Positions 6,906-23,650 of a stretch of DNA of 64,000 nt are shown piece by piece. The DNA is taken from the NCBI RefSeq assembly GCF_030410135.1, contig NZ_JAUGQQ010000004.1, positions 124,001 to 188,000 of the forward strand, written 5' to 3'. Each line of letters starts with the position of its first letter. The first letter of the stretch is position 1. A program made the translations under genes and the position numbers. Under the pieces are notes generated by a model. The model did not search any database and was not told where the DNA came from. It saw nothing but the letters and a program-made list of their open reading frames with translations. This stretch comes from Aequorivita aurantiaca (lineage in GTDB: Bacteria; Bacteroidota; Bacteroidia; Flavobacteriales; Flavobacteriaceae).

Positions 6906-8075
6906 TTAATAAGTTAAAATTTCCTTGGATTTTTCAATGGTTCTAAAGGCTTCGGAAAGATCGCTTATCAAATCCTCGGCATCCTCAATTCCGCAGGAAA
7001 GGCGGATTAGCGAATCATTGATTCCGGCATTTAAACGAATTTCACGCGGAATGGAGGCGTGCGTCATTTGTGCGGGATGGCAAAGCAAACTTTTAACGCC
7101 TCCAAGACTTTCGGCCAATTTGAAATAGTCTGTACTGGTCACAAATTTCACGGCAGCTCCCTGCGTATCATCTTTGAGACTGAAAGAAATTATTCCGCCG
7201 AACAAACCATTTTGCTGCTTTTTTGCGATTTCGTGATTTTTGTGGGCTTTTAAACCTGGGTAATGCACTTTTTCAACAGCATCTTGGCTTTCCAAAAACA
7301 AGGCAACTTTCAGCGCATTTTCACATTGTTTTTTATAGCGAATATCCAACGTTTCAATTCCGCGAATTGTAAGGAAACAATCCCACGGACCTAAAATTCC
7401 GCCGGAAGCATTTTGAACAAATTTGATTTTTTCTGAAAGCTCTAGTGTATTTGTAATTACCAAACCAGCAACCAAATCGGAATGTCCGCCGATGTATTTT
7501 GTGCCACTGTGAATAACGATATCTGCACCCAAATCAATTGGTTTTTGGGCAATTGGCGAAGCAAAAGTATTATCAACAACCAAAAGCGCATTTACGCTTT
7601 TCGCCACTTTTGAAATCGCTTCAATGTCTGAAATTTTCAAGGTTGGATTTGTTGGCGATTCAATCCAAATCAACTTTGTTTTTTTAGAAACAGCGTTTGC
7701 TACGTTTTCAACTTCGGTGGCATCAACGTAGTTTACTTTTATTCCCAATTTTTCGTAAACATGGGTGAAAAGTCTATACGCACCGCCGTAAATATCGTCA
7801 ACCGCTACGATTTCATCTCCCGCAGAAAGCAATTTCAAAACCGAATCAATTGCCGCTAAACCTGTTGCAAAGGCAAATCCGGAATGACCGTTTTCAAGAT
7901 TTGCGACCACGTCTTCCAACACTTTGCGGGTTGGATTGTTACTTCGGGCATAATCAAAACCTTTGTTTACACCCGGCGCCTCTTGGATAAAGGTCGATGT
8001 TTGGTAAACCGGAACGGAAATAGCTCCTGTTAGCGGATCACTTGGAATGGAATGGATAATTTTTGTTGCACTCAT
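6906..8075 (-). CDS. metB: Cystathionine gamma-synthase / O-succinylhomoserine (thiol)-lyase family
   Basis: PLP-dependent trans-sulfuration enzyme of 389 residues (Cys/Met metabolism family). The PLP lysine is in HSGTKYIGGHSDLVAG. Other family motifs are YARSNNPTRKVLE, ATGLAAIDSV and the C-terminal SLGGVKSLLCHPAQMTHAS...IRLSCGIED. It is the first gene of a leftward operon (metB-hom-osmC) led by the SAM-I riboswitch at 8203-8318. It could use an acyl-homoserine with cysteine or with sulfide; the sequence does not decide which. Confidence 0.92.
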   Translation of the reverse strand: MSATKIIHSIPSDPLTGAISVPVYQTSTFIQEAPGVNKGFDYARSNNPTRKVLEDVVANLENGHSGFAFATGLAAIDSVLKLLSAGDEIVAVDDIYGGAYRLFTHVYEKLGIKVNYVDATEVENVANAVSKKTKLIWIESPTNPTLKISDIEAISKVAKSVNALLVVDNTFASPIAQKPIDLGADIVIHSGTKYIGGHSDLVAGLVITNTLELSEKIKFVQNASGGILGPWDCFLTIRGIETLDIRYKKQCENALKVALFLESQDAVEKVHYPGLKAHKNHEIAKKQQNGLFGGIISFSLKDDTQGAAVKFVTSTDYFKLAESLGGVKSLLCHPAQMTHASIPREIRLNAGINDSLIRLSCGIEDAEDLISDLSEAFRTIEKSKEILTY

Positions 8076-9938: not shown

Positions 9939-11477
9939 TTACATTCCTCCCTTTCTTTCGGGAACCCTAGGCGTAGGCCAAGTTTCACGTTCTCCAGTTT
10001 TATGGTCAATGGGCAAAATAACTTGCTCTCGCGAAGTTTTCGACTCATCCTCTGAAGCCATATACGCCATTATTGCAGTGAGAATTACGTTGCTCTGCAC
10101 GTCGTCAAAAACAATTTTATCATAGGTATCGCGGTTTGTATGCCACGTATAATTCCAATAATCCCAGCTCAACGAACTTAAACTAAATGCAGGGGCGCCG
10201 GCGGCCGCAAAACTCGCGTTATCAGATCCGCCTCGTGAGGGCAAGCCAGGGAATGTGGTTTCAATATGCTTGCTGATGGTGTCTGGCACTGCTTCTAACC
10301 ATCGCGAAATATAATCGTAGGAATGCAGGAAACCCGCCCCGTTAATTTTTGTAACTCGGCCGGTGCCATTATCTTGGTTGAAAACCGCCTGAATATTGCT
10401 TACAATTTCAGGATGGTCTTCGACGAATGCCGATGAACCGTTCAAACCTTGCTCTTCACTTCCCCAATGACCAACCAAAATAGTTCTTTTTGGATTTGGA
10501 TATACTTTTTTCAGAATGCGCATGGCTTCCATCATAACCAAGGTTCCCGTTCCGTTGTCGGTGGCTCCCGTGCCGCCATCCCAAGAATCGAAATGTGCGG
10601 AAAGAATTACATATTCCTCAGGTTTTTCAGTTCCTTTTATTTCGGCAATTGTATTAAATGTTGGCACAACCCCTAAATCCTTGGATTCTGCCACCACGTG
10701 TATTTTCGGTTTGTCGCCGTGTTCCACCATTCTAAAAAGCATGGTGTAATCTTCCAATTCAAGATCGACAGTTGGGATTTTTTTGGTTCGGGCGCCGAAG
10801 ATTTTATTCACCCCAAAACCTTTGGACCAATACGAATCCACAATTCCAACGGCTCCGGCTTCTTCCAATGCTGGAATAATGCTTCTTCTATCGTAACCGC
10901 TTCGTTTTATATTTTCGTCCCACGCTTTGGTCTGTGCCTCCCGTTCCTTTTTCATTTTTTCGAATGACTCGGGGGTTGCCCATTCTTTCCAGTTATCATC
11001 TGGTCTTCCAGTGGATTGGTTCATTGCAATCATAACGAATTTTCCCTTCGCATTTGGCAACCATTTTTGAAATGACAACGAATCTTTTATTTCCGGTAGT
11101 ACTATCAATTCCGCAGTTACACCTTTTGAAGAAGTACCAGGATTCCACGCCAATTGCGTTCCATCCAAAGTCTGAACACGAGGATGTACCATATCAATAT
11201 GCGTGATGCCCCGCTCCCAGCCTTTCCATTGGCCATATTGTTGGTTTTCTGCGGAAATTCCCCAGCCCTTATATTTTGCCACTGCCCAATCGTGGGCTTG
11301 CTGCATTTGTGGGGTACCCACTAATCTAGGACCGATATCGTCCAATAGTTCATGGGCAAGAATTTTTAGTTGTGAATTTTCGTAAGCTTCCTTTTGGATG
11401 TTTTCAATTACGGTATTTTGTGAAAATAATGTAAGGGTTGAAAATAATAAGAAGGTAAAGGAGAATAGTTTTTTCAT
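9939..11477 (-). CDS. Secreted M28-family metallopeptidase with PA domain
   Basis: Exported zinc aminopeptidase or carboxypeptidase of 512 residues. A signal peptide (MKKLFSFTFLLFSTLTLFSQ) is followed by an inserted PA-type region and the M28 domain. Candidate zinc ligands are SAHFDSWD (H), GATDNGTG (D), SEEQGLNGS (catalytic and ligand E), FNQDNGTG (D) and the late WHTNRDTYD (H). Overall it resembles carboxypeptidase Q-like proteins of Bacteroidota. No type IX sorting domain is seen at the C-terminus. It stands alone between metK and the response regulator. Confidence 0.92.
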   Translation of the reverse strand: MKKLFSFTFLLFSTLTLFSQNTVIENIQKEAYENSQLKILAHELLDDIGPRLVGTPQMQQAHDWAVAKYKGWGISAENQQYGQWKGWERGITHIDMVHPRVQTLDGTQLAWNPGTSSKGVTAELIVLPEIKDSLSFQKWLPNAKGKFVMIAMNQSTGRPDDNWKEWATPESFEKMKKEREAQTKAWDENIKRSGYDRRSIIPALEEAGAVGIVDSYWSKGFGVNKIFGARTKKIPTVDLELEDYTMLFRMVEHGDKPKIHVVAESKDLGVVPTFNTIAEIKGTEKPEEYVILSAHFDSWDGGTGATDNGTGTLVMMEAMRILKKVYPNPKRTILVGHWGSEEQGLNGSSAFVEDHPEIVSNIQAVFNQDNGTGRVTKINGAGFLHSYDYISRWLEAVPDTISKHIETTFPGLPSRGGSDNASFAAAGAPAFSLSSLSWDYWNYTWHTNRDTYDKIVFDDVQSNVILTAIMAYMASEDESKTSREQVILPIDHKTGERETWPTPRVPERKGGM

Positions 11478-11556
11478 AATAGTAGGTTTATTCTTCCGAA
11501 GAGATTTTCGGAAATAAAAACCCTAAAATTACAACTATTTTCAGGAAGTAAAAACC

Positions 11557-12204
11557 TTAAATAATATTGTGGTTTCGCGCCTTTTGAACGGCTTCAATCT
11601 TGCTGTGCACTTGCAATTTTTTGTAGATGTTTTCAATGTGTTTACGCACGGTGCTTGGCGAAAGGAAAAGATGGTCGGCGATCACGGTATAACTCAATCC
11701 TTTGCTCAATTGTTCCAAAACCTCCACCTCGCGCGAGGAAAGCGATATTTCCTCTTGGTCGCGTGGGTTTTGGATATTTATTGGATTTCTGAGAAGTTTC
11801 AAGGTTTTCATTGCAATGGAAGGGTTCATCGCCGCGCCGCCGTTCAGTGTTTCCACGATTCCTTCATATAGATCTTTTGGATTTATTTCCTTCAGCAAAT
11901 AGCCATCCGCGCCGGCTTTTATTGCGTTGAAAATATGTTCGTCGTTATCAAAAGCTGTGAGCATTATTATTTTGATGTGCGGATATTTCTGCTTTACTAT
12001 TTGCGTAGTTTCGATTCCATTTAAAACCGGCATTTCAATATCCATCAAAATCAAGTCGAGGTTATGGTTTTCCTGCAGTTTTGTGAGCAATTCGCTGCCG
12101 TTCAAAGAAGTGTGCTTCACAGCTATGTCATCAAAAAAAGAGAGTTTTTCCTTAATGGCGTGAATGAGGAAAGAGTTGTCGTCAACGATTGCGATCTTTA
12201 GCAT
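11557..12204 (-). CDS. LuxR/NarL-family response regulator
   Basis: 215 residues. The N-terminal receiver domain has acidic pocket DDN (8-10), phosphoacceptor D in LILMDIEMP (about 55), T in MLTAFDND and K in YLLKEINP. The C-terminal LuxR helix-turn-helix is LSSREVEVLEQLSKGLSYTVIADHLFLSPSTVRKHIENIYKKL. Its partners are probably the two HisKA_3 kinases at 12851-14806 and 15139-17118, since such kinases pair with NarL-type regulators. Its own promoter carries the palindrome TAGGGCATATGTCGTA at 12265-12280, also found before three neighbouring genes, which suggests autoregulation. Confidence 0.93.
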   Translation of the reverse strand: MLKIAIVDDNSFLIHAIKEKLSFFDDIAVKHTSLNGSELLTKLQENHNLDLILMDIEMPVLNGIETTQIVKQKYPHIKIIMLTAFDNDEHIFNAIKAGADGYLLKEINPKDLYEGIVETLNGGAAMNPSIAMKTLKLLRNPINIQNPRDQEEISLSSREVEVLEQLSKGLSYTVIADHLFLSPSTVRKHIENIYKKLQVHSKIEAVQKARNHNII

Positions 12205-12264
12205 CTCCAGTAGGTTAGTTGTTTTAAAGATACTGAAATTAGCTTATAAAAGACTACCAAAAAA

Positions 12265-12280
12265 TAGGGCATATGTCGTA
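12265..12280 (-). promoter_or_regulatory. Palindromic site upstream of the response regulator
   Basis: TAGGGCATATGTCGTA, an imperfect palindrome. A -10-like TAATTTCA (12234-12241, minus strand) lies exactly 23 bp downstream, and a better TATCTTTA (12225-12232) lies 32 bp downstream. It is one of four related sites; see 15113, 19169 and 19943. Confidence 0.55.
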
Positions 12281-12360
12281 TATCGAAATTTCAAAAATAA
12301 TTTTTCACATTTTCAAAAATTGAGATACTTTCGCGCCGATTGTAACATAAACCAACTATT

Positions 12361-12759
12361 ATGAAAGTTCTAAAACAACTTACCCTTTTACTTTTGTTAA
12401 CCACCGTTTTTATTGGTTGTAATAAAGATGATGACGACAATAACGAGCCTACGCTCTTCGACTCTTGGAAAATAACCAGCGCCAAAAACAACAACCTACC
12501 GGAAGAACTTGATGCTTGTGACCTTAAGTTCACCATTACCTTTACCGAAACCAATATGAGTTTCAACGAGTATTACGGTGAAAATTGTGATTCCAACTAT
12601 GGCTATACCATGGCCTATACCCGTAATGGAAATACGCTGATTGTAGGTACCGGATCGGATGCCGAGTCTATGGAAATAACCAAATTGACCGATACTACGC
12701 TGGAAATTACGGATGTGGACGGAACCGATATTTACGTAGAAACCTATACAAGACAATAG
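12361..12759 (+). CDS. Small lipocalin-like lipoprotein
   Basis: 132 residues. A lipoprotein signal peptide ends at FIGC (cysteine near residue 20), followed by an acidic NKDDDDNNE spacer typical of surface-exposed Bacteroidota lipoproteins. The rest is beta-rich, starting LFDSWKITSAK, as in lipocalin-like domains. No enzyme motif is seen. Transcribed divergently from the response regulator with a TACTTTCG box about 40 bp upstream, and closed by a strong terminator. Role unknown. Confidence 0.8.
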   Translation: MKVLKQLTLLLLLTTVFIGCNKDDDDNNEPTLFDSWKITSAKNNNLPEELDACDLKFTITFTETNMSFNEYYGENCDSNYGYTMAYTRNGNTLIVGTGSDAESMEITKLTDTTLEITDVDGTDIYVETYTRQ

Positions 12760-12776
12760 TCTGTTCAAACCTAAAT

Positions 12777-12810
12777 AAGCCGCTGACTATTTAAATCAGC
12801 GGCTTTCTTA
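12777..12810. terminator. Terminator between convergent lipoprotein and kinase genes
   Basis: AAGCCGCTGA and TCAGCGGCTT form a 10-bp perfect stem with a CTATTTAAA loop, followed by TTCTTA on the plus strand. Placed between convergent ends (12759 and 12851). Confidence 0.9.
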
Positions 12811-12850
12811 TGGAAAATTTTTAGGTGTGGTATCTTTAATACCTAACAGT

Positions 12851-14806
12851 TTAGTTAGAAAGTCTTAACGAAATGCGAGTTCCTTTTTTGGAAGAGATAA
12901 CTTGGAGTATGCCATCAATCTCCCGAGCACGTTTTTTCATATTGTTAAGGCCGTTGCCTGCATCGATAGTCTCTAGATTAAAACCTTTTCCGTTATCGGC
13001 AATCTCGATTTGGTATTGCTCGTGTTCTTTTAAAATATTCACCTCGATCTCGTCGGCGACGGCGTATTTCAGTGCATTGTTCACCGCTTCCTGAATTATT
13101 CTATAAATATTCATTCCTTCCACGGATGAAAAGACGTGGCCTTCATCAACATTTTCGTCAATGCTGAATGAAAAATCGGTTTTTTCCGAAGCGTTTTTGG
13201 CGTGCTCAATAAAGTTTGCAATTCGCGCCTGAAGGTCTTCAAAAGTGATGTTTTCCTTATTCATCGCCCAAATGGTATCGCGCAATTCATAAATAGTTTG
13301 GGAGGTGAAATTGCTGATACTTGTGAGTTTATTTCCCAATTTTTCGCCTATGTCCGAAAATCCATATTTAAGATTGTCGATGCTGGAAATGATGAACGTG
13401 AGCTGCGCGCCAATGTTATCGTGAAGGTCGCGCGATATTCGCAAACGCTGCTCTTGTAATTTGTTTTGGGTTTCAATTCTTGCCAAAGCGGTTTTCAACT
13501 CGCCCTCCTTTTGAAGTTGGCGGTTCTTTAATTTTTGTTGATTGTACAACAAATAGCCCAACAATCCCAAAACCAGAGCAAGACCTAAACTTCCAAAAAT
13601 AAATGTGTTTTTTCGGCGCACCTCCAAATCCTTTTCGGCCAATTGTGCGCGTTGTTGCAGGATTTGGTTTTCCTTTTTTTCCGATTCGTATTTCTCCTCA
13701 AGTTCATTGGTGATTTTCAGGGCTTCCTCACCCACCATTTCCTCTTGAATTTGGGCATATTTTTTAGTGTAATATTGGGCACTGTCGGGTCTCTTTTCAC
13801 TTGCGAAAACAGTAATATATTGCAGATAAAGTCTTGAAAGTTTTTCCTTTATACCTTCCTTCTTATAGAATGGCCTAATTTCATCCAACAACAATCGGGC
13901 CTTGGCATATTCACCTAAGGTGTTGTGAATGCCCGCCAATGTGAGTTTGGAGCTCATCAAATCCGCAATCATATTTGAATTGGCGCGATATTGAATTGAT
14001 TTTGAAATGGCCTCTTTGGCTTGGTCGATTTTATTTTCAGCCATAAAAACTTCGCCAAGATTGTTATATGCCGAACCCAGCGTTTCAACATTATTGATGG
14101 CTTCCGAAATCTTAATACTTTCATTCAAAGTTTTGATGGCCGCCAAAGTATCTTTCATTACCAATTGAATGCTGGCCTTATTTACCAGCGCATTGCCCAG
14201 AAGTTTGTCTTCCTTGGTTTTTCTGAAAAATTTGATATTTTGTTCAAAATATCGCATCGCTTCGCCATAATTTTGTTGATTGAAATGCAAGGCCGCGATG
14301 TTGCTCTGGGCAGAATTGGCCAAAACCTCATTGCCCGTATCTTCATAATATTTGAGTGCTTTTAGATAATAGATCATCGCACTGTCCAACTGGGTTTTTT
14401 TGTGGTAGGCAGTCCCCATTTTGTAATGAAGTGAAGCTATTCCCGCGGAATCTGCCTGTTTTTTCCTAATTGCAAGCGACTGGTTGTATAAATTGATTGC
14501 ATTTTTAAGATCTCCTTTTCCGTAATTTACAACGGCAAAATCGCTCAAGGCCTGGGCAATGAGGGTTGAATCGCCAATCTTTTTTGCAAGTTTTAGTGAT
14601 TTTTCGCCATATACAAACGCTGAGTCTGTGTTGACCATGCTGTAATACCAGGTTAGATCTGCCACAATTTTTGCTTTATCAACGTTGGAAGTTGCTTGTG
14701 GAAGTTTGTTTTTAAGACTATCGATTATTTGTACAGGATCTTGCGAAAATGTTTTTCCGCCAAGAAAGAAGCAAAAGATTATTGGCAACAATACCCTATA
14801 TATCAT
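12851..14806 (-). CDS. TPR-containing sensor histidine kinase (HisKA_3)
   Basis: 651 residues: signal peptide (ends TFSQ), about eight TPR repeats (residues 25-350), a coiled segment, one transmembrane helix (FIFGSLGLALVLGLLGYLLY, about 400), then a HisKA_3 dimerisation box with the phospho-histidine in RISRDLHDNIGAQL and a C-terminal HATPase with DNGKGFN and GNGLNNMKKRA. Periplasmic TPRs probably sense a protein or peptide signal. It overlaps the small membrane-protein gene upstream by 11 bases. The catalytic part is almost identical in layout to the kinase at 15139-17118, indicating a tandem duplication. Confidence 0.93.
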   Translation of the reverse strand: MIYRVLLPIIFCFFLGGKTFSQDPVQIIDSLKNKLPQATSNVDKAKIVADLTWYYSMVNTDSAFVYGEKSLKLAKKIGDSTLIAQALSDFAVVNYGKGDLKNAINLYNQSLAIRKKQADSAGIASLHYKMGTAYHKKTQLDSAMIYYLKALKYYEDTGNEVLANSAQSNIAALHFNQQNYGEAMRYFEQNIKFFRKTKEDKLLGNALVNKASIQLVMKDTLAAIKTLNESIKISEAINNVETLGSAYNNLGEVFMAENKIDQAKEAISKSIQYRANSNMIADLMSSKLTLAGIHNTLGEYAKARLLLDEIRPFYKKEGIKEKLSRLYLQYITVFASEKRPDSAQYYTKKYAQIQEEMVGEEALKITNELEEKYESEKKENQILQQRAQLAEKDLEVRRKNTFIFGSLGLALVLGLLGYLLYNQQKLKNRQLQKEGELKTALARIETQNKLQEQRLRISRDLHDNIGAQLTFIISSIDNLKYGFSDIGEKLGNKLTSISNFTSQTIYELRDTIWAMNKENITFEDLQARIANFIEHAKNASEKTDFSFSIDENVDEGHVFSSVEGMNIYRIIQEAVNNALKYAVADEIEVNILKEHEQYQIEIADNGKGFNLETIDAGNGLNNMKKRAREIDGILQVISSKKGTRISLRLSN

Positions 14807-15059
14807 TATAACTTTCCATTAGAATTATTTCAGGCTGGACTACCAAAGCTTCCTCCAAATTATATTTTTGAAAGTCGTATCGATTCAGGTTTTCATTTCT
14901 AAAATTCAATTGAAAACGGGTGATGGAAATAGCATTTTCCAAAGTCAAAATATAGTGATTATGCGTTTTCGAAAGTGTATCTTTCGCATTAAAAAACCAT
15001 ACTAAAAGTCCGATGACCGCAATGGATAAGACTATAGTTATGGCAATTTGAAAAATCAT
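14796..15059 (-). CDS. Small single-pass membrane protein upstream of the kinase
   Basis: 87 residues: an N-terminal membrane helix (IFQIAITIVLSIAVIGLLVWFF) and a short, probably extra-cytoplasmic, domain. No family is recognised. It overlaps the kinase start by 11 bases. A promoter-like TATCTTTA (15082-15089) preceded by a 16-bp perfect palindrome lies just upstream and would place the transcript start about 15 nt before this ATG. That argues it is a real first gene of the kinase operon, perhaps a co-sensor. It could still be only leader. Confidence 0.55.
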   Translation of the reverse strand: MIFQIAITIVLSIAVIGLLVWFFNAKDTLSKTHNHYILTLENAISITRFQLNFRNENLNRYDFQKYNLEEALVVQPEIILMESYNDI

Positions 15060-15112
15060 ATATAAAATTGGAATTAAAACTTAAAGATAGTTGAATTCTA
15101 TCCTTGAAAATA

Positions 15113-15128
15113 TAGGGCAATTGCCCTA
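15113..15128 (-). promoter_or_regulatory. Perfect palindrome TAGGGCAATTGCCCTA upstream of the kinase operon
   Basis: 16-bp perfect palindrome, 23 bp upstream of TATCTTTA (15082-15089) on the minus strand. Best member of the four-site family. Probable binding site for the nearby LuxR-type regulator, centred at about -45. Confidence 0.6.
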
Positions 15129-15138
15129 ATTATTTAAT

Positions 15139-17118
15139 TTAAAAAACAAGTTCAACGGTGGTTCCTTTTCCTTCCTTTGAAATTATTTCAACCTTACCAC
15201 CCAAATCATTTGCGCGTTTTTTGATGTTCGCAATACCGTTGCCGAAACTGGAATTTTCCAAATTGAAACCCTTTCCGTCGTCGTATATTTTTATTCTATA
15301 TTTCCGAATATCGCCACCAGTTCCCTCTATTGGAAAAGCATCTTTTTCAATAGATAATTCAATGTTTTTTGGTTCAGCATATTTTAGCGCATTATTCACG
15401 GCTTCTTGAATAATTCTATAAATATTCATTCCTTCAACGGAAGTAAAATGTGCGTCAATTAAAACATCTTTATTCACATTAAAATGAAAATTGACATCGC
15501 TCGCCGCTCTTGCTTTTTCAATGAAATTTGAAATGCGTACCTGCAAATCTTCAATAGAAATATCGGTTTTGTTCATCGCCCAAATTGTGTCGCGAAGCTC
15601 ATAAATAGTCTGCGATGCAAACTCGCTAATCTTGCCCAATTTTGTGGTCACATTATTGGCTGCGCCTTCCAAACCAAATTTTAAATTATCTATGGATGAA
15701 ATAATAAAAGTGAGCTGCGAACCAATATTGTCGTGAAGATCGCGCGAAATTCGAAGCCGCTGCTCTTGCAATTCGTTTTGGGTTTCTATTTTTGCCAGCG
15801 CGGTTTTCAGTTGGCTTTCCTTTTGTAATTGGCTGTTTTTCAGTTTTTGCTGTCTGTACACCAAAAATCCTAATATTCCCAAAAAAATTGCCGCAGTAAT
15901 TGCTCCAAAAATAAAAATGTTTTTCTGTTTTACTTCCAATTGGGTTTCGGCAAGATTGGCACGGGTTTCGGCTAAATTTCTTTCATTTTCCGAAACCTTG
16001 AATTTCGTTTCCAAATCGGCAGTTTTCTCCGCATTTTCGGTTGAAAAAATACTGTCTTTTGCAGCCAACGTTTTTTCAAAATAAGCATTTCCTTCCTTAT
16101 AATTTTTATCCCTAAAATATGCCTGGGAAGCGGCACTATAAAAATCGACGGCGGAAACTTTCAACTCTGGGAATTCAACCAAAAATGCATTTCCCTTTTC
16201 AATGTAATTTTTCGCGGCATTTAACTGCCCATTTCGGGAATATGCAATTATAAGATTGGCAATGGCTGAAAGATTGGACCTTCGGTCAATATTGAGTCTA
16301 TCTCTTTCTTTTATTGAAGTTTCCAAAATATGAATGGCCTTTTGATGCGTTCCATTTAAAATATAAAGCTCCGCCAATCCGTTTGACGCACTGTATAGAA
16401 TGCCAAATTCGTTAACTTCCTTTGCAGTTTTTATGGCTTCCAGAAAAGATTTTTCAGCTTCTTTATAATTTTTTTTCAGCGTAAGACTAACTCCAATATT
16501 GTTAAGTGAAATGGCAACATCCTTTTTATTACCAATACCTCGCCGTATTTGTAACGCCTCATTATGATACTCCAATGCTTTTTCGGGCAATCCCATTTCT
16601 TGGTAAATGAGACCAATATTACTGTAGTAGGTATCGGCTGCCGATTTTGAAAGTTTGCTTTTGTTAATCTCCAGCGCTTGAAAAAAATAATCCAACGCTT
16701 CCTGATAATTGCCTTTGTTCCAGTGGAACATCCCGAGATTGTTTATTACCATTACGGTAATTATTTCGTAGTTGTTCTTTTTACTGATGCTCAGCGCTCT
16801 TTCGAAATAATATTTTGCGGAATCGGATTTTCCCGAAACGTCATAGTAAATTCCATAAGTGTTTACTAGCTCTGCTTCAGAAAAAGGAATTTTTTTCTTT
16901 TGGGAAAGCGCTATTCCTTGAACCAATAATTTTTTTGCACGTTCGGGTTCGTTGAAAATATAATAAAAGCTTATTCTATTGTAATGCCTCAGTTTAATGG
17001 AATCGTTTGAAGTTTCCGCAACCTGCATTAGGCTGTCCATTTTTTTTGCTGCTGACTGGGAAAAGAGTGTTGAAAGTCCAAAAGTTAAAAACAGAAAAAC
17101 ACTTAAAACACTTTTCAT
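15139..17118 (-). CDS. TPR-containing sensor histidine kinase (HisKA_3), second paralogue
   Basis: 659 residues from the ATG at 17116-17118, which begins a signal peptide (MKSVLSVFLFLTFGLSTLFSQ). The open frame extends to 17310, but that extension runs through the terminator of the upstream gene. Order: TPR repeats, a helical stretch with repeated NLAETRANLAETQ, a membrane helix (IFIFGAITAAIFLGILGFLVY), HisKA_3 with RISRDLHDNIGSQL, and HATPase with DDGKGFN and GNGIANIKKRA. A TACTTTTA box (17141-17148) can serve as its own promoter. The response regulator at 11557-12204 is the only candidate partner in view. Confidence 0.93.
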   Translation of the reverse strand: MKSVLSVFLFLTFGLSTLFSQSAAKKMDSLMQVAETSNDSIKLRHYNRISFYYIFNEPERAKKLLVQGIALSQKKKIPFSEAELVNTYGIYYDVSGKSDSAKYYFERALSISKKNNYEIITVMVINNLGMFHWNKGNYQEALDYFFQALEINKSKLSKSAADTYYSNIGLIYQEMGLPEKALEYHNEALQIRRGIGNKKDVAISLNNIGVSLTLKKNYKEAEKSFLEAIKTAKEVNEFGILYSASNGLAELYILNGTHQKAIHILETSIKERDRLNIDRRSNLSAIANLIIAYSRNGQLNAAKNYIEKGNAFLVEFPELKVSAVDFYSAASQAYFRDKNYKEGNAYFEKTLAAKDSIFSTENAEKTADLETKFKVSENERNLAETRANLAETQLEVKQKNIFIFGAITAAIFLGILGFLVYRQQKLKNSQLQKESQLKTALAKIETQNELQEQRLRISRDLHDNIGSQLTFIISSIDNLKFGLEGAANNVTTKLGKISEFASQTIYELRDTIWAMNKTDISIEDLQVRISNFIEKARAASDVNFHFNVNKDVLIDAHFTSVEGMNIYRIIQEAVNNALKYAEPKNIELSIEKDAFPIEGTGGDIRKYRIKIYDDGKGFNLENSSFGNGIANIKKRANDLGGKVEIISKEGKGTTVELVF

Positions 17119-17146
17119 ATATAATTTTTGCGGTTTTTTTAAAAGT

Positions 17147-17181
17147 ACATAAAAAATAAACCCCATAGTTGAATATGGGGC
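17147..17181 (-). terminator. Terminator downstream of the beta-propeller gene
   Basis: On the minus strand CCCCATA-TTCAAC-TATGGGG is followed by TTTATTTTTTAT. It lies 60 bp after the stop of the gene at 17240-19111 and before the second kinase. Confidence 0.88.
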
Positions 17182-17239
17182 TTCAAAACTGCAAATGCTC
17201 CTCACTTCATCTGCGGTTTGGGATAATTTGGTTAGGAGA

Positions 17240-19111
17240 TTATTTTTTAAGATCGTATGCGAAAATCGAATTGGTATCTGCCTTATAATAAAGTATTCCG
17301 CCAATTTCATCCACTATATATTCGGGCTGTTTATCTTTCAGGACAATTTCCTTATCGACTTTTCCGGTGTCTTTGCTCAATTTTACAAGCCCCACACCGT
17401 CATCAAGTTTTGTTAATATGAATTGGTCATTTTGTGTGGCGGCGGTAGCCTTGAAACGTTTCAACATTTCTGAAATTGAAGCGCCCGTAGCCATTGCAAG
17501 CCCGCCGGCCAATTCGGCTTCGCGATCGGCCTGACTGTCGTACCCTTGCAATCTATTGTTCATTGACGAATTTGCGGCGGCAGTGGCAGCAGCGGCAGAG
17601 GCCACCGCAGAAACTCCGGCTAAGATTGCGCCCATAGCACTTTTACCCGGCGCACGGTAATATTCCTGCCATTGCTTTCCTCCATTCCAATCCATTAAAA
17701 GCATATTTTGTTCGCTGGTCAATAAAATTCCGCCGTTGCGAATTTCTACATGCGATGGCGCTTCCTTGCCATCAAATTTTGATTCTGCCAAAGTGCTCAC
17801 TTCGCCGGAAGTTGCATCAACGGCGTACAGAGTTTCGTCTGCGCTGATTAAGTACCGATTGTTTTTACTGTCCAAAGTTGAACTTACTGCACCTGCTCTT
17901 TTGTATTTTAAGGGTTTATCCCAGACCTGCTCGCCTGTTTTTAGGTTTACAATATTGGCGTCTTCGGAAGTGATATAAATCAGTCCTTGTGGAGTTTCGG
18001 CCATCGTTAAAATATTCTCGCCAGTTTTCAATGGTTTTTTGAAAAGTGTTTGCCCATCAAAAGAAATTTTGTTGATTCCGCCTTGATAAATTCCGAAAAG
18101 AATTCCGTCTTCCATTACATAAAAATGTTGAACGTAGCCTTTCGTTTTTGGTGCTTTTTCCCAAAGATCTTCCCCGCTAGAAGCGTTTAAAAATGCAATA
18201 TTAGATTCGTTGCTTGCCGCAAAAACACTATTGCTGCCGCCATCGCTTTGGTTGCTCACAACCGCAATTCCATTGGGAAGAATTTCAAAATTCACCACCT
18301 GGCCTTTTACTTTTTTGTCGTCTTTCCAAAGCTCTGCCCCGCTAACTCCCACTTTGTGGATGCGGGTATTCTTTCCTTGGTTTACACTTTCAAAACCGTA
18401 AATTTCCTTTTCATCGGCACTTGCAACCATCCAGTTGATGTCCTTTATTTCATTTTGCCAAAGAGTTTCGCCTGTTTGTGCTTTTTTAGCAACAATTCCC
18501 TTGGTAGTTGGAATAAGCAAATGGTCCTTTAATAGTAACGGTGTTCCCGAAACGGTCATTCCCGTTCCGCCCACGGTAACTTTGTTTGGGTCGGTAATAT
18601 GAAAACGGTAGTCTTCCTTTCCAGTGTTTAGGTCATAAACCCCAAGGTCATAAGCAAACTTTTCTTCGGAACGGCGCTGCCCAATTACTACCAATTTATT
18701 TTGTGGCATCATAACATCGCAACTATAAACAGCCTTCCAACCATTACCCTCTGTGGAAAAAAGGGTTTTTCCCGAAATGTAATCTATTACTGTTTTTTTC
18801 GAAGTTATTCCCGCAAAACCTCCTTGCGATATCATTACGTAAGGCGCCTTTGGAATGAAATAAAGTTCTTCTGGCTTCACCCTGCCATATTCTGTAAAAT
18901 TAAACAACAGTTGGTTGCTACCTGGTTTTATCCCCACAAGACCATCGTTGGTAGCAACCACCATTGTTCCTCCTTGCGTTAAAGACATTTCGTTTATTTT
19001 GGCACCGGTATCATAGCGATAATCCGGTTGCTCTGCTTTTTGTGCAATAATGGAGCTCGTCATAAAAAAAGCGAGACAGGCCATTGCGTAAAATTTTGTT
19101 GAAGTTTTCAT
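17240..19111 (-). CDS. Exported PQQ/quinoprotein-like beta-propeller protein
   Basis: 623 residues from the ATG at 19109-19111, opening a signal peptide (MKTSTKFYAMACLAFFMTSSIIAQ). The frame continues upstream to 19207 but crosses the promoter. The body contains repeated blades of the type 'DLNTGKEDYRF', 'TSSGEDLWEKAPK', 'NLKTGEQVWDKPL' and 'DATSGEVSTL', as in PQQ-binding-like repeats, interrupted near residue 500 by an alanine-rich stretch (AILAGVSAVASAAAATAAAN) that may span or bind membrane. No catalytic PQQ ligands are evident. It is preceded by the palindrome at 19169-19184, so it is a likely target of the local two-component system. Confidence 0.8.
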   Translation of the reverse strand: MKTSTKFYAMACLAFFMTSSIIAQKAEQPDYRYDTGAKINEMSLTQGGTMVVATNDGLVGIKPGSNQLLFNFTEYGRVKPEELYFIPKAPYVMISQGGFAGITSKKTVIDYISGKTLFSTEGNGWKAVYSCDVMMPQNKLVVIGQRRSEEKFAYDLGVYDLNTGKEDYRFHITDPNKVTVGGTGMTVSGTPLLLKDHLLIPTTKGIVAKKAQTGETLWQNEIKDINWMVASADEKEIYGFESVNQGKNTRIHKVGVSGAELWKDDKKVKGQVVNFEILPNGIAVVSNQSDGGSNSVFAASNESNIAFLNASSGEDLWEKAPKTKGYVQHFYVMEDGILFGIYQGGINKISFDGQTLFKKPLKTGENILTMAETPQGLIYITSEDANIVNLKTGEQVWDKPLKYKRAGAVSSTLDSKNNRYLISADETLYAVDATSGEVSTLAESKFDGKEAPSHVEIRNGGILLTSEQNMLLMDWNGGKQWQEYYRAPGKSAMGAILAGVSAVASAAAATAAANSSMNNRLQGYDSQADREAELAGGLAMATGASISEMLKRFKATAATQNDQFILTKLDDGVGLVKLSKDTGKVDKEIVLKDKQPEYIVDEIGGILYYKADTNSIFAYDLKK

Positions 19112-19168
19112 AATTGTGGTTTTAAACGTTGACGGTTCAAAGATGCTTCCGAATAAAAGTGAAATCAA

Positions 19169-19184
19169 TAGGGCAGTTGACGTA
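19169..19184 (-). promoter_or_regulatory. Palindromic site upstream of the beta-propeller gene
   Basis: TAGGGCAGTTGACGTA, 23 bp upstream of CATCTTTG (19138-19145, minus strand), a near match to TAnnTTTG. Spacing is identical to that at 15113. Confidence 0.6.
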
Positions 19185-19194
19185 TTTGGCGTCT

Positions 19195-19262
19195 CTCGAC
19201 TACCCAAAGGGGAAGAATACTATTTCTGTGGAATTTCCCCTTTGGGGGTAAGGGGGCTAAAA
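19195..19262. repeat. Palindromic CCCCTTTGGGG repeat
   Basis: CCCAAAGGGGAA (19202 on) faces TTCCCCTTTGGG about 40 bp later, followed by GGTAAGGGGGCT. This is the family of C-rich palindromes seen again at 53033-53051 and, in frame, inside the phenylalanine hydroxylase gene (54251-54271). The 230-bp gap 19112-19341 holds this and the promoter site. Confidence 0.65.
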
Positions 19263-19341
19263 AAAACCGGAAGCCAAACTTGCGTTTCGCCCCCGGCCCA
19301 CGTAAAAACCCCAACTCTGAGATTTTCTTAAATGCTTGTGG

Positions 19342-19860
19342 CTATTGAAAATTTACATCGAATAAACCTTCTGTAATTTCCTTAAAGCTTCCGTCTGCAT
19401 TTTTTCCTTTAAAATTAAAAGTACCCTTAATATTTGTAGTCGAAACTTCTGAAACATTTATTTCACCGGCTACGCTCTCATCATAAGGTGCTGACCAAAT
19501 TTCGGCATCCATAGGGTTTGAAACATCCACTTCAGTGTAACTAGCGTTTACAAAAACATTCGCTCCACCGCCAATATTATAAGAGCCTACACCTTCAAAT
19601 CCTGAAATAATTGACAAGCTAATATTTTTGCCATTCATAGTGTTCGCGGTAATCGTCACGCTACTGGTGCCACTTGCATCTGTGCGGATTGCGCTGGTTA
19701 ACGAGGCGTCCGACTCATAATTTGCTCCTGCAACCTTCGCCTTTACCGTGCCCGAAGTTGCGCCTCCGCCTCCGCCGCCATCGTCATCTTTTTTACAAGA
19801 AGTTAAACTTATGGCCATTACCGCCATTAAAACTAAAATTGAGTTTTTGAAAATTTTCAT
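19342..19860 (-). CDS. Lipoprotein of the DUF6252 type
   Basis: 172 residues: lipoprotein signal with lipobox LTSC (residue about 22), an acidic then glycine-rich linker (KKDDDGGGGGG), and a beta-rich domain containing VKAKVAGANYESD near the start and GTFNFKGKNADG near the end, as in DUF6252 outer-surface lipoproteins. Function unknown. It is preceded by the palindrome at 19943-19958, so it is probably regulated together with the beta-propeller and kinase genes. Confidence 0.8.
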   Translation of the reverse strand: MKIFKNSILVLMAVMAISLTSCKKDDDGGGGGGATSGTVKAKVAGANYESDASLTSAIRTDASGTSSVTITANTMNGKNISLSIISGFEGVGSYNIGGGANVFVNASYTEVDVSNPMDAEIWSAPYDESVAGEINVSEVSTTNIKGTFNFKGKNADGSFKEITEGLFDVNFQ

Positions 19861-19942
19861 AATGTTTGGTTTTATGTTCCGCGCTTGGCGAATACGTGAT
19901 TAATGTTGAAGCAAAATTGCCCCAAACCTTAAGTTTTCACAA

Positions 19943-19958
19943 TAAGGCATTTGACGTA
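19943..19958 (-). promoter_or_regulatory. Palindromic site upstream of the DUF6252 lipoprotein
   Basis: TAAGGCATTTGACGTA, 23 bp upstream of CAATTTTG (19912-19919, minus strand), which matches AnnTTTG. It shares TTGACGTA with the site at 19169. Confidence 0.55.
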
Positions 19959-19994
19959 TTCTGTAATTATGAATGGAGAAGTAAGAATTCTGAA

Positions 19995-20978
19995 TTAAAA
20001 TTTTATCTGTGGAAAACGCTTTTCAATTGAAGCGATTTTCTGCTGCAGTTTTTCAGAAAATTGAAGATGTTCCGCGCTTTGCGGATTAAAAGGCCTGTGA
20101 AGCAAACCGGCTTGGATAACTGCTATTTCCTTTTGAAGCGCAATTGTTTCCGAAGAAATCCACACTTCCGAAAATTTCTGCCAGATTATTTCGATCGCTG
20201 TTCTGTTTGGGTGAAGCATATCCTCCGCATAAAAACGGTAATCGCGAAGCTGGTCCACCATAATTTCAAACGACGGAAAATATTTGGGTTGATGGTTGAT
20301 AGTTGATTGTTGTTGCCCTTCGACAGGCTCAGCGTGACATATTGTTTTGTGAATTGCAGAAATGAGATGTGCTTTGCTTAACGAATTTTCCACAAAACCA
20401 TCCTTTATATGCCGAACTGGGGAAACGGTATTTATGATAATCGCTTTCGGATTTATTTCAGAAATTCTAATGAAGATATTCTGCATGCTTTTTGAAATAT
20501 CTTCGATGGAAAGCAATTCCTTTGTAAAATTTTGCTGTGGAATTTTATGGCAATTGGCCACAATTTCATTGGATTTTATATTCCTATAAACCCACGAAGT
20601 CCCGAAGGTGAAAATAATGTGTGTGGATGAAAAAAGTGCTTCGCGTAAATTTTGAAGTGCGGCATTTAAAATTTGAAGAAATTCATCTTTTTCCAACCTA
20701 GAAATTTCTGAATGCGTCTCAAAACATTTCCAAATTCCATTATGCTGAAAAATATCTTTTTCTGAAAAAGTTTCGTTTTCAACTGCTCGAACAACAAGCT
20801 TTTCAATGGAAACAGGATTGAAAATTATACCAAAAGGATTTTGTAGATTCTGAAATTTAAAATACTCAAACTTCGCCCCAATATTTTCCGAAAAACAACT
20901 TCCCAACAAAAGTACTTTTGAAGAATAATCTATTTGATTTTCTTCGGGTTTTAGAGGTATTTCGGTTTGTAGTTTCAT
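19995..20978 (-). CDS. GSCFA-domain protein (SGNH-hydrolase-like)
   Basis: 327 residues. The family-naming motif is visible as LLLGSCFSENIGAKF near residue 28, with FGIIFNPVSI following. GSCFA proteins are predicted SGNH-fold hydrolases; the late DQLRDYRFYAEDMLHPN supplies the usual D/H pair. Substrate unknown. Around residues 213-232 the protein contains HAEPVEGQQQSTINHQPKY, which is the in-frame translation of two unrelated short repeats (20286-20339), so this segment is an insertion. Downstream of alaS on the same strand, with 59 bp between. Confidence 0.9.
   Translation of the reverse strand: MKLQTEIPLKPEENQIDYSSKVLLLGSCFSENIGAKFEYFKFQNLQNPFGIIFNPVSIEKLVVRAVENETFSEKDIFQHNGIWKCFETHSEISRLEKDEFLQILNAALQNLREALFSSTHIIFTFGTSWVYRNIKSNEIVANCHKIPQQNFTKELLSIEDISKSMQNIFIRISEINPKAIIINTVSPVRHIKDGFVENSLSKAHLISAIHKTICHAEPVEGQQQSTINHQPKYFPSFEIMVDQLRDYRFYAEDMLHPNRTAIEIIWQKFSEVWISSETIALQKEIAVIQAGLLHRPFNPQSAEHLQFSEKLQQKIASIEKRFPQIKF
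20286..20339. repeat. Two repeat units in frame inside the GSCFA gene
   Basis: A GGTTGATGGTTGATAGTTG tract (same family as at 2431, 2823 and 2954) abuts CCCTTCGACAGGCTCAGCG (same family as at 47553 and 48382). Both are translated without interrupting the frame. Confidence 0.8.
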
Positions 20979-21037
20979 TCATTAATATTCAGTTGGAAGT
21001 AGCAGTTGGCAGCACTGTATCTTGAAACTGCCAACTA

Positions 21038-23650
21038 CTACTTCAAAAACTCTTTCGCTTTTTCCAAAGCTCCCTCAATTCCCGCAGGATTTTTACCGCC
21101 CGCGGTTGCGAAGAATGGTTGTCCGCCGCCGCCTCCTTGAATGTATTTACCCAAATCACGAATAATTTTTCCAGCATCGAGGTTTTTTTCCGAAGCCAAT
21201 TCCTTTGAAATATAGCAGGCCAGCAACGCTTTTTCGTTTTGTTCGGCACCAAAAACCACAAACAAATTTTCCGTTTCGCCGCCCATTTCAAAAGCCAAAT
21301 CCTTCATTCCGCCGGCATCCAAATCAATTTTTTTGGCTAAGAAATTAACCCCATTTATTTGTACGATTTCGGCTTTTAATTCCCCTTTTAAATTCTTCGC
21401 TTTGTCCTTCAACAATTGCTGAATCTGTTTTTGCAGATTGCTGTTTTCTTCCTGCAAACTTTCCACAGCTTTCACAGGGTCCTGCGCATTGTTCAACGCC
21501 TTTTGTAGCGATGCAAAAGATTCACTTCTATCAATAAAATATTGTTTTGCGGCATCGCCAGTTATTGCTTCAATCCTTCGAATTCCAGATGCAACCGCGC
21601 CTTCGGAAGTAATGATAAAATGCCAAATATCATTCGTATTTTGAACGTGCGTTCCGCCGCACAGCTCCATGGATTTTCCAAATTTTATCGCTCGCACGGC
21701 ATCGCCATATTTTTCTCCGAAAAGCGCAATGGCACCTTCGTCAATGGCCTGTTGGTACGGAATATTTCGTTTTTCTTCCAAAGCGATTCCTTCGCGGATT
21801 CTTGCATTCACAAAATCCTCAACCTGTTTCAATTCCTCATCGCTCACCTTTGCGAAATGTGAAAAATCAAAACGCAAGTTTCGGCTGTGGACCATACTAC
21901 CCTTTTGTGCCACGTGTTCACCCAAAATATTTCGCAAACCTTGGTGAAGCAAGTGGGTTGCGGTGTGATTTGATGCGGTTCGGCTTCGTTGATTTTCGTC
22001 GACTACTGCCTTAAAAGTAGCTTCAGGATTGCGCGGAAGATTTTTTGCGAAATGAATAATTAAATTGTTTTCCTTTTTGGTGTCAACAATATAAGTAACG
22101 CCCCCATCGGCTGCCTCCAAATAGCCTTTATCGCCCACTTGCCCGCCGCCTTCGGGATAAAATGGCGTAAGGTTGAAAACGAGTTGGTACATTTCGCCCT
22201 CCTTTTTGCTTTCAACTTTTCGGTAACGGGTTATTTTTACATGGGTTTTCAACGTATCGTAGCCCACAAATTCCTCATCATCGTCCTTTTCCAAAACCAC
22301 CCAATCACCGGTTTCGACTTTTGTCGCGGCACGGGAACGGTCCTTTTGTTTTTGAAGTTCTTCATCGAATTCCTTTTCATTTAACGAATAACCTCGTTCG
22401 CGAAGAATCAATGCCGTTAAATCTATTGGGAAGCCGAAGGTATCGTATAATTCAAAAGCCTTTTTTCCCGAAATTTCTTTGGAATCGGCAGTTTCTATCA
22501 CATTTTCAAGCAGCACCAAACCTTGATCGAGTGTTCGTAAAAAAGAATTTTCCTCTTCGCGAATTACATTCGTAATCAGGTTTTTCTCATTTATTAATTC
22601 TGGGAAAGCCTCGCCCATTTGCGCGCTCAGAGTTTCAATCAATTTATAGATGAAAGGCTCTTTTTTGTCCAAAAACGTAAATCCATAGCGGATTGCCCTT
22701 CTCAAAATTCTTCGGATTACGTAACCCGCACCCGTATTACTGGGAAGTTGTCCGTCAGCAATTGAAAATGCCACGGCGCGAACGTGATCTGCAATCACTC
22801 TCGTGGCAATATCTTTCTTTTCGTCTTTTCCGTAGGTTGTATTTGTAATTACTCCTATTTCACGAATCAATGGTGTGAAAACATCGGTGTCGTAATTGCT
22901 TGTTTTATTTTGGAGCGCCATGCACAAACGCTCGAAACCCATTCCCGTATCCACGTGCTGCGCCGGTAATTTTTCAAGGCTTCCATTGGCTTTTCGGTTG
23001 AACTGCATAAAAACCAAATTCCAAATTTCCACAACTTGTGGATGGTCATTGTTCACCAAATCTTTCCCAGGAATTTTCGCTTTTTCTTCCGCAGATCGAA
23101 TGTCAACGTGAATTTCGCTACACGGCCCGCACGGACCTTGGTCGCCCATTTCCCAGAAATTATCTTTTTTGTTTCCGTTTAAAATTCGGTCTTCGGGTAC
23201 AAATTGTTTCCAAAGATTGTAGGCTTCGGTATCGCGCTCCAATCCTTCACTTGCATCGCCTTCAAAAATGGTTACGTATAGTTTGTCTTTATCAATTTTA
23301 TAAACTTCGGTTAAAAGTTCCCACGCCCACTCGATGGCTTCTTTTTTAAAATAATCGCCAAAGCTCCAATTGCCCAACATTTCGAACATAGTGTGGTGAT
23401 AGGTGTCCATTCCCACCTCTTCCAAATCGTTGTGTTTTCCGCTTACGCGAAGGCATTTTTGGGTGTCGACAATTCGGTTATTTTTGGGTTTCCCATTTCC
23501 TAGAAAATATTCCTTAAAGGGCGCCATCCCACTGTTGATGAACATTAACGTGGGATCGTTCTTCACAACCATCGGCGCGGATGGCACGATTAAATGTTGC
23601 TTCGACTTGAAAAATTCTAAAAATTGGGAACGGATTTCCTTGGAATTCAT
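21038..23650 (-). CDS. alaS: Alanyl-tRNA synthetase
   Basis: 870 residues, full length. The class II catalytic core starts at [22 protein letters not shown], with [19 protein letters not shown]. The editing domain has [11 protein letters not shown] and [12 protein letters not shown] zinc-site residues. The C-Ala domain ends [20 protein letters not shown], which matches the family glycine-rich motif. Cytoplasmic and essential. Divergent from the M23 peptidase gene, a pairing common in Flavobacteriia. Confidence 0.98.

What the first reader, a model, noticed from the sequence alone, without database searches (positions are those of the whole stretch)
12265..19958. Four promoters in the two-component island share a 16-bp palindrome at a fixed distance from the -10 box
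TAGGGCATATGTCGTA (12265), TAGGGCAATTGCCCTA (15113, perfect palindrome), TAGGGCAGTTGACGTA (19169) and TAAGGCATTTGACGTA (19943) lie upstream of, respectively, the response regulator, the small-protein/kinase operon, the beta-propeller gene and the DUF6252 lipoprotein, all on the minus strand. In the last three the gap between the site and a TAnnTTTG-like octamer is exactly 23 bp; in the first a weaker octamer also fits 23 bp. The placement (centre near -45) is that of a class II activator. I infer that the LuxR-type regulator binds here and controls its own gene, a kinase and two envelope proteins. The TPR domains of the kinases may sense the envelope state.
Basis: partly seen in the sequence, partly recalled or inferred. 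Interest (0 to 1): 0.68.

Follow-up and report, generated by a model that had tools for sequence, protein, structure and literature searches.

The report
Two-component regulon with a hidden RNA
A marine bacterium's sensor-regulator pair appears to switch on its own genes, two exported proteins and a small structured RNA through one repeated DNA site, and in related species the RNA has outlived the protein gene it was attached to.

Summary
The four sites are real, beyond chance and deeply conserved: 7-2-7 inverted repeats 23 bp upstream of a -7 box. In 28 Aequorivita genomes they recur upstream of the lipoprotein (26/26), propeller (13/13), small-protein/kinase (26/27) and regulator (27/28) genes. 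Across 199 family genomes a stringent site+promoter pattern occurs in 26, all among the 52 with the regulator, none among the 147 without. Estimated centre is -43.5, close to NarL's -44.5 at ogt. So this regulator very probably binds them, most likely as activator; binding and direction are untested.

The propeller's 3' end (window 17150-17247, minus) is a covarying RNA of two hairpins plus terminator, with one strong copy in 28 of 28 Aequorivita genomes. Fourteen lack the propeller gene; in 13 of those a site-promoter sits just before the RNA, predicting a 103-107-nt small RNA in ten measured cases (172 nt in two). Propeller presence changes about six times on a gene tree (at least two firmly supported). 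I read the RNA as a CpxQ-like arm of a local, perhaps envelope-related regulon. Its production, targets and signal are unknown.

The parts
11557..12204 (-). response regulator gene, 215 aa (receiver + LuxR-type HTH)
   Evidence: Pfam Response_reg and GerE; orthologue in 28 of 28 Aequorivita genomes
12265..12280 (-). 7-2-7 site of the regulator gene; octamers at 12234-12241 (gap 23, TAATTTCA) and 12225-12232 (gap 32, TATCTTTA)
   Evidence: conserved upstream of 27 of 28 genus orthologues
12851..14806 (-). kinase 1: TPR region, HisKA_3, HATPase_c
   Evidence: Pfam
14796..15059 (-). small 87-aa protein with a hydrophobic N-terminus, overlapping the kinase 1 start
   Evidence: ORF; no Pfam match; conserved beside the kinase in all 28 genus loci
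15113..15128 (-). perfect palindromic 7-2-7 site of the small-protein/kinase 1 operon; octamer 15082-15089 (TATCTTTA, gap 23)
   Evidence: 26 of 27 genus orthologues
15139..17121 (-). kinase 2: TPR region, HisKA_3, HATPase_c; no site of its own
   Evidence: Pfam; site scan
17150..17247 (-). structured RNA element: H1 (loop CUAACCA), H2 (10-nt loop AAGUGAGGAG, 17189-17216), terminator; overlaps the propeller stop codon
   Evidence: fold z -3.15; covariation; one strong copy in 28 of 28 genus genomes
17240..19114 (-). exported beta-propeller protein, 624 aa, BamB-like PQQ_2 match
   Evidence: Pfam PQQ_2 E 9.8e-15; present in 14 of 28 genus genomes
19169..19184 (-). 7-2-7 site of the propeller/RNA transcript; TTG at 19166-19168, octamer 19138-19145 (CATCTTTG, gap 23)
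   Evidence: 13 of 13 genus orthologues
19342..19860 (-). DUF6252 lipoprotein, 172 aa, lipobox followed by acidic residues
   Evidence: Pfam DUF6252 E 1.8e-8
19943..19958 (-). 7-2-7 site of the lipoprotein gene; TTG at 19940-19942, octamer 19912-19919 (CAATTTTG, gap 23)
   Evidence: 26 of 26 genus orthologues

Best explanation
This is a compact, locus-borne regulon of a LuxR/NarL-type two-component system. A dimer of the phosphorylated regulator binds a 7-2-7 inverted repeat that abuts the -33 element of sigma-A promoters (estimated centre -43.5) and helps RNA polymerase to start at its own gene, at the small-protein/TPR-kinase operon, at a DUF6252 lipoprotein gene and at a beta-propeller transcript. 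The propeller transcript ends in a structured RNA that I think acts on its own as a small regulatory RNA: released from the propeller mRNA where that gene exists, and made directly from the same kind of site-promoter where the gene has been lost. Shown by comparison: sites, spacing, conservation, co-occurrence with the regulator, RNA structure, retention of the RNA without the coding sequence. Inferred: binding, phosphorylation dependence, activation, stable RNA production, any trans action, and an envelope role (from the exported nature of the targets).
For: Sites and spacing; genus and family conservation; 26 of 52 genomes with the regulator versus 0 of 147 without; the site core follows the regulator's helix type in 51 of 51 PS loci versus 11 of 63 xG loci; NarL-like placement; RNA covariation; one strong RNA copy in 28 of 28 genomes against the propeller in 14 of 28; 13 of 14 propeller-less species keep a site-promoter before the RNA; repeated loss of the coding sequence.
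Against: No binding, expression or phenotype data. Half of the regulator-bearing family genomes (26 of 52) lack the stringent pattern, many of them with a shifted site. The helix/site link rests on 3 supported independent comparisons and on a tree that still held the helix columns. One propeller-less species (G003) has no site before the RNA and one species (G012) lost the H2 loop. No RNA target signal was found.
Confidence: 0.72

Rival explanations
1. The 3' element is only a terminator with an mRNA-stabilising or protein-binding hairpin; where the propeller gene is gone it is a leftover that has not yet decayed.
For: It sits at the stop codon of the propeller gene and ends in a terminator. 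No target was found. G003 shows a recent-looking loss.
Against: The UGAGG loop is kept in 14 of 14 propeller-less genomes, as against 13 of 14 with the gene; 13 of 14 also keep an intact site-promoter; loss happened more than once.
Confidence: 0.3
2. The regulator binds the sites but represses, or both represses and activates at different promoters (for example autorepression of its own gene).
For: The site lies next to the -33 element, where a bound dimer could also block polymerase (inference). Two promoter classes exist, with and without TTG behind the site.
Against: Fixed 23-bp gap and a centre near -43.5 as for NarL activation at ogt; small-protein and regulator promoters mostly lack TTG, as expected if the regulator stands in for it.
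Confidence: 0.15
3. Another DNA-binding protein, such as a paralogous LuxR-type regulator, uses these sites.
For: Each Aequorivita genome holds many related regulators (16-36 matches to this one at E <= 0.001).
Against: 0 of 147 regulator-less family genomes have the pattern; the 7-2-7 symmetry suits a NarL-type dimer; the site core follows this regulator's helix type.
Confidence: 0.06

Closest known systems
NarL and its 7-2-7 sites at the E. coli ogt and yeaR promoters (PMC7419079; abstract and passages read)
   Same: regulator of the same fold family (NarL is among the closest solved structures); inverted heptamers 2 bp apart; site abutting the -35/-33 element (ogt -44.5, here about -43.5)
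   Different: heptamer TASGNCA instead of NarL's TACYYMT (NarL consensus recalled); Bacteroidetes-type -7 box; small regulon, nearly all in its own locus; kinase with a TPR region
Cpx system with the cpxP mRNA and its 3' sRNA CpxQ (PMC4817254; abstract and section list read)
   Same: two-component system controls an mRNA for an exported protein whose 3' UTR holds an RNA
   Different: unrelated proteins and RNA; no RNA has been observed here; here the RNA persists in species without the protein gene
Conserved small RNAs of Flavobacterium psychrophilum, Rfp1-89, e.g. Rfp18 (PMC9723704; abstract, section list and passages read)
   Same: conserved, structured small RNAs of the same family of bacteria
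   Different: no link to a two-component locus in the passages read; their sequences are in supplements that I could not open, so identity with one of them is not excluded
VraR, NarL, DesR response regulators in the PDB
   Same: full-length sequence relatives (VraR 7ve6 E 2.4e-30, NarL 1a04 E 1.6e-28)
   Different: other targets, hosts and signals

Membership tests
NarL/FixJ (LuxR-type) response regulators | receiver domain plus C-terminal GerE/LuxR helix-turn-helix | tested here: met
   Pfam Response_reg 1.2e-24 and GerE 3.6e-18
NarL-type 7-2-7 operator | two inverted 7-base elements separated by 2 bp | tested here: met
   window sites and base counts over 158 sites; definition from PMC7419079
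NarL-type 7-2-7 operator | NarL heptamer consensus TACYYMT (recalled) | tested here: not met
   heptamer here is TA[ACG]GNCA; only the first letters agree
Activator site next to a sigma-A promoter | site centred about -41 to -45 at a fixed distance from the -7 box | tested here: met
   gap 23 in 131 of 158 sites; box at -12 to -5 in F. psychrophilum; the start sites here are not mapped
Activator site next to a sigma-A promoter | binding raises transcription | not testable with these tools
   needs an experiment
3' UTR-derived or stand-alone small RNA (CpxQ-like) | conserved structured 3' end with an intrinsic terminator | tested here: met
3' UTR-derived or stand-alone small RNA (CpxQ-like) | discrete stable transcript that pairs with target mRNAs | not testable with these tools
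   no expression data; a crude search for loop complements gave no signal
known Rfam family | match to a covariance model of Rfam 15 | tested here: not met
   window 11000-21500 at E up to 1: 0 matches; L160, L172, L164, L137: 0 at gathering score

The most novel reading that the evidence does not exclude
A two-component system of Flavobacteriaceae controls a dual-output transcript (propeller protein plus regulatory RNA) in which the RNA is the part under lasting selection: the protein gene has been lost repeatedly, its promoter and 3' RNA closing up into a stand-alone small RNA, and other genera carry a second, different structured RNA in the same place. It would be an envelope-type regulon with an RNA arm in a phylum where few such circuits are described.
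Probability: 0.55. Interest if true: 0.78.

Novelty: new variant of a known kind. Interest (0 to 1): 0.62.

Why it matters
It gives an exact, testable regulon (sites, spacing, targets, likely binder) for a widespread two-component system for which I found no study, in a family with few mapped regulators. It adds a conserved structured RNA without a match in the Rfam searches made here, and a natural comparison, 14 species with and 14 without the protein gene, that separates what the RNA does from what the protein does.

Tried and rejected
Genome-wide scan with the bare, loosened 16-mer: no excess (22 rows versus 35 reversed control), so dropped in favour of site+promoter patterns. The extra perfect 16-mer at C11:639372 lies inside a long open frame and is not counted as a target; a one-mismatch hit at C33:176270 lies in an ORF on the other strand. 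Target search for the H2 loop: a 9-mer complement in the own genome gave 8 rows versus 7 control, one of them the RNA locus itself; one lay 48 nt before a possible start, none convincing. Complements of the loop inside the 28 loci: no recurring site. Family search with the RNA model: 25 of 199 genomes at E <= 0.01, but most beyond the two Aequorivita and a few propeller loci are weak and elsewhere in their genomes, so not counted; the family RNA evidence rests on reading the stretch after the propeller stop. A hidden small protein in the stand-alone transcript was considered and dropped (longest frames 3-14 codons in ten species, 28 in two). Structure prediction was not used: it would not decide the question. 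For the H2 pair count 6 of 33 sequences were left out because their hairpin is in another register or has lost the loop. Regulators were grouped by helix type after seeing the sites; the grouping was then applied to 80 further loci, some from the same genomes, and all were pooled as 126 distinct proteins.

Not in print, as far as searched: (open-access PMC only) listed nothing on this locus or RNA. Papers: PMC9723704 abstract, section list and passages; PMC7419079 abstract and passages; PMC4817254 abstract and section list; all others search listing only.
Full report
OBSERVATION. In the window the pattern gives 5 matches against 0.30 expected and 0 of 100 shuffles. The site-to-octamer gap is 23 bp for three of them; for the regulator gene the octamer at 23 is weak and a better one is at 32.

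THE ORGANISM. The window lies in a 3.09-Mb genome. Two contigs of its genus-mates agree in length and match position with named records (G001:C63 and NZ_VORT01000006.1, Aequorivita antarctica; G003:C6 and NZ_KE386850.1, A. capsosiphonis), so the genus is Aequorivita, family Flavobacteriaceae.

CONSERVATION IN THE GENUS. All 28 held genomes have the regulator; the other 27 copies are 88-96% identical to it and the next paralogues at most 41%. I took the locus from all 27 relatives. Within 230 bp upstream, a site with at most one mismatch to TAVGNCANNTGNCBTA stands before 26 of 26 lipoprotein, 13 of 13 propeller, 26 of 27 small-protein and 27 of 28 regulator genes for which that much sequence was held. 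In 322,136 bp of these loci TASGNCANNTGNCSTA has 61 perfect hits; six scrambled patterns have none. For the site plus 23 bp plus -7 box in whole genomes, 93 of the 96 zero-mismatch rows shown lie in this locus and 3 elsewhere (24 of 28 genomes; the list was cut off); reversed controls give 0-2 per strand and genome with one mismatch allowed. I read one of the three distal sites (G010): it lies 49 nt before a gene whose product starts like an exported protein, and G006 carries the same 47-mer.

CONSERVATION IN THE FAMILY. In 199 genomes, about one per genus, the regulator passes E 1e-55 in 52. The stringent pattern (site, TTG, 20 bp, CAnnTTTG, one mismatch) occurs in 26, all among those 52, and in 0 of the other 147; the reversed pattern in none (Fisher p 1.9e-18, not corrected for kinship). 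In the 51 family loci read, a site with at most one mismatch stands before 20 of 30 lipoprotein, 16 of 37 propeller, 11 of 14 small-protein and 19 of 51 regulator genes. Many of the remaining genera have a shifted site, TACGTAATTCATCGTA-like, with the same TTG and the same 23-bp gap. The shift goes with the start of the regulator's recognition helix: SPSTVRKHIE versus SxGT[IV]RKHIE. Among 126 distinct regulators, 51 of 51 PS-type with sites have the CA..TG core, against 11 of 63 xG-type with sites. The tree, which still held the helix columns, allows only 3 supported independent comparisons, nearly always agreeing, so this is suggestive, not proof.

GEOMETRY. The sigma-A -7 box of F. psychrophilum spans -12 to -5 (PMC9723704). 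With a 23-bp gap the 16-mer then covers -51 to -36, centre -43.5. NarL binds 7-2-7 sequences and activates ogt from -44.5, next to the -35 element (PMC7419079). Over 158 sites an octamer is at gap 23 in 42 of 46 lipoprotein, 28 of 29 propeller, 34 of 37 small-protein and 27 of 46 regulator promoters; regulator promoters also show gap 32 in 25 of 46. TTG follows the site directly in 44 of 46 lipoprotein and 29 of 29 propeller promoters but in only 2 of 37 small-protein and 5 of 46 regulator promoters. I take this as activation, with two promoter classes.

THE RNA. In many Aequorivita loci a further site-promoter is followed by no gene. Aligning 12 of these gave a conserved non-coding stretch ending in a terminator. 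The same stretch is the propeller's 3' end in the window, 17150-17247 minus, starting at the stop codon. It folds into H1 (loop CUAACCA), H2 (10-nt loop around UGAGGAG) and a terminator; 7 of 8 sequences folded singly score z -3 or lower, one -1.6. The H2 stem changes while its loop stays: 79% of cells paired against 65% in shuffles, 38 double changes against 16.2 +- 3.7, 0 of 500 shuffles (6 of 33 sequences left out). For the whole element 45 double changes against 17.4 +- 4.5, 0 of 500. Related sequences can exceed such shuffles without structure, but partners slid by 1-3 columns do far worse in both counts. Rfam has no match.

A model from 21 Aequorivita sequences finds exactly one strong copy (E at most 3.5e-8) in each of 28 genomes, 7 of them not used in the model; the next hit anywhere is 3.8e-5. 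The propeller protein is found in only 14 of 28. Of the 14 without it, 13 have a perfect site-promoter just ahead of the RNA: ten predicted transcripts of 103-107 nt, two of 172 nt, and the copy of G017, read but not measured; the fourteenth, G003, has none. G003 shows what looks like a decaying propeller end in front of an intact RNA (my reading). On a tree of the regulator gene, propeller presence changes 6 times, at least 2 of them forced by well-supported branches; L053 and L056 (without) are sisters at 100/99. The UGAGG loop is kept in 27 of 28 genomes; G012 has lost it.

Outside the genus, 11 of the 16 family loci with a site before the propeller have GAGGAG soon after its stop; 0 of 22 without such a site do. 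Of those 22, 19 have instead a TTGTTGTTG hairpin loop followed by a terminator (alignment). So a conserved RNA behind the propeller is a family trait, in two sequence types.

HOW IT PROBABLY WORKS. Signal to the TPR kinase(s), phosphate to the regulator, dimer on the 7-2-7 site, activation of its own gene and kinase (positive feedback), of the lipoprotein gene and of the propeller-RNA transcript. Most further targets that I read in other loci start like exported proteins, one of them the propeller itself on another contig (L195). That, and the CpxP/CpxQ parallel (PMC4817254, abstract), suggest an envelope role. The signal, the kinase-regulator pairing and the RNA's targets are untested. In the window, kinase 2 has no site of its own and would need read-through of the RNA's terminator or an unseen promoter.

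STANDING. The regulator belongs to the NarL/FixJ group and the operator has NarL architecture with another sequence. The RNA would work like a 3'-end small RNA if it is made; it is not a member of any family searched. I rate the whole a new variant of a known kind.

Noticed in passing
L149-L175 (family loci), directly after the propeller stop codon: A different, strongly conserved 3' element (AAATCTTGTTGTTGAGATT hairpin plus terminator) in 19 of 22 loci without the classical site; no Rfam match in L160, L172, L164.
   Followed up: partly
the same loci, about 60-250 nt further downstream (alignment): A second apparent non-coding transcript: conserved TCGAAAAATT upstream, ATGCTATTAATCA at its presumed start, and a terminator ending in TTTTTTT.
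   Followed up: no
window 12361-12759 (+): Divergent lipocalin-like lipoprotein gene (Pfam Lipocalin_4) shares the intergenic region of the first site; found beside the regulator in 3 of 28 genus loci (window, L072, L073).
   Followed up: partly
L055, L064, L065, L074 (~500 aa); L135, L137-L139, L141, L142 (~465 aa); L136 at 5137; L050, L138 at 3801, L142 at 6088: Further site-promoters before other genes, mostly with signal-peptide-like starts, including a protein with MORN-like repeats in L136.
   Followed up: partly
L086, L204, L195, L213, L197: Distal sites outside the locus, each 49-57 nt before an ORF with a signal-peptide-like start; L195 is the propeller itself on another contig.
   Followed up: partly
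L234 (G003), just before the RNA element: What looks like a decayed propeller C-terminus in front of an intact RNA element: a recent loss of the coding sequence.
   Followed up: partly
L075 (G012), oriented 7381-7482: The H2 stem is kept but the UGAGGAG loop is replaced by an A/T-rich loop of the same length.
   Followed up: no
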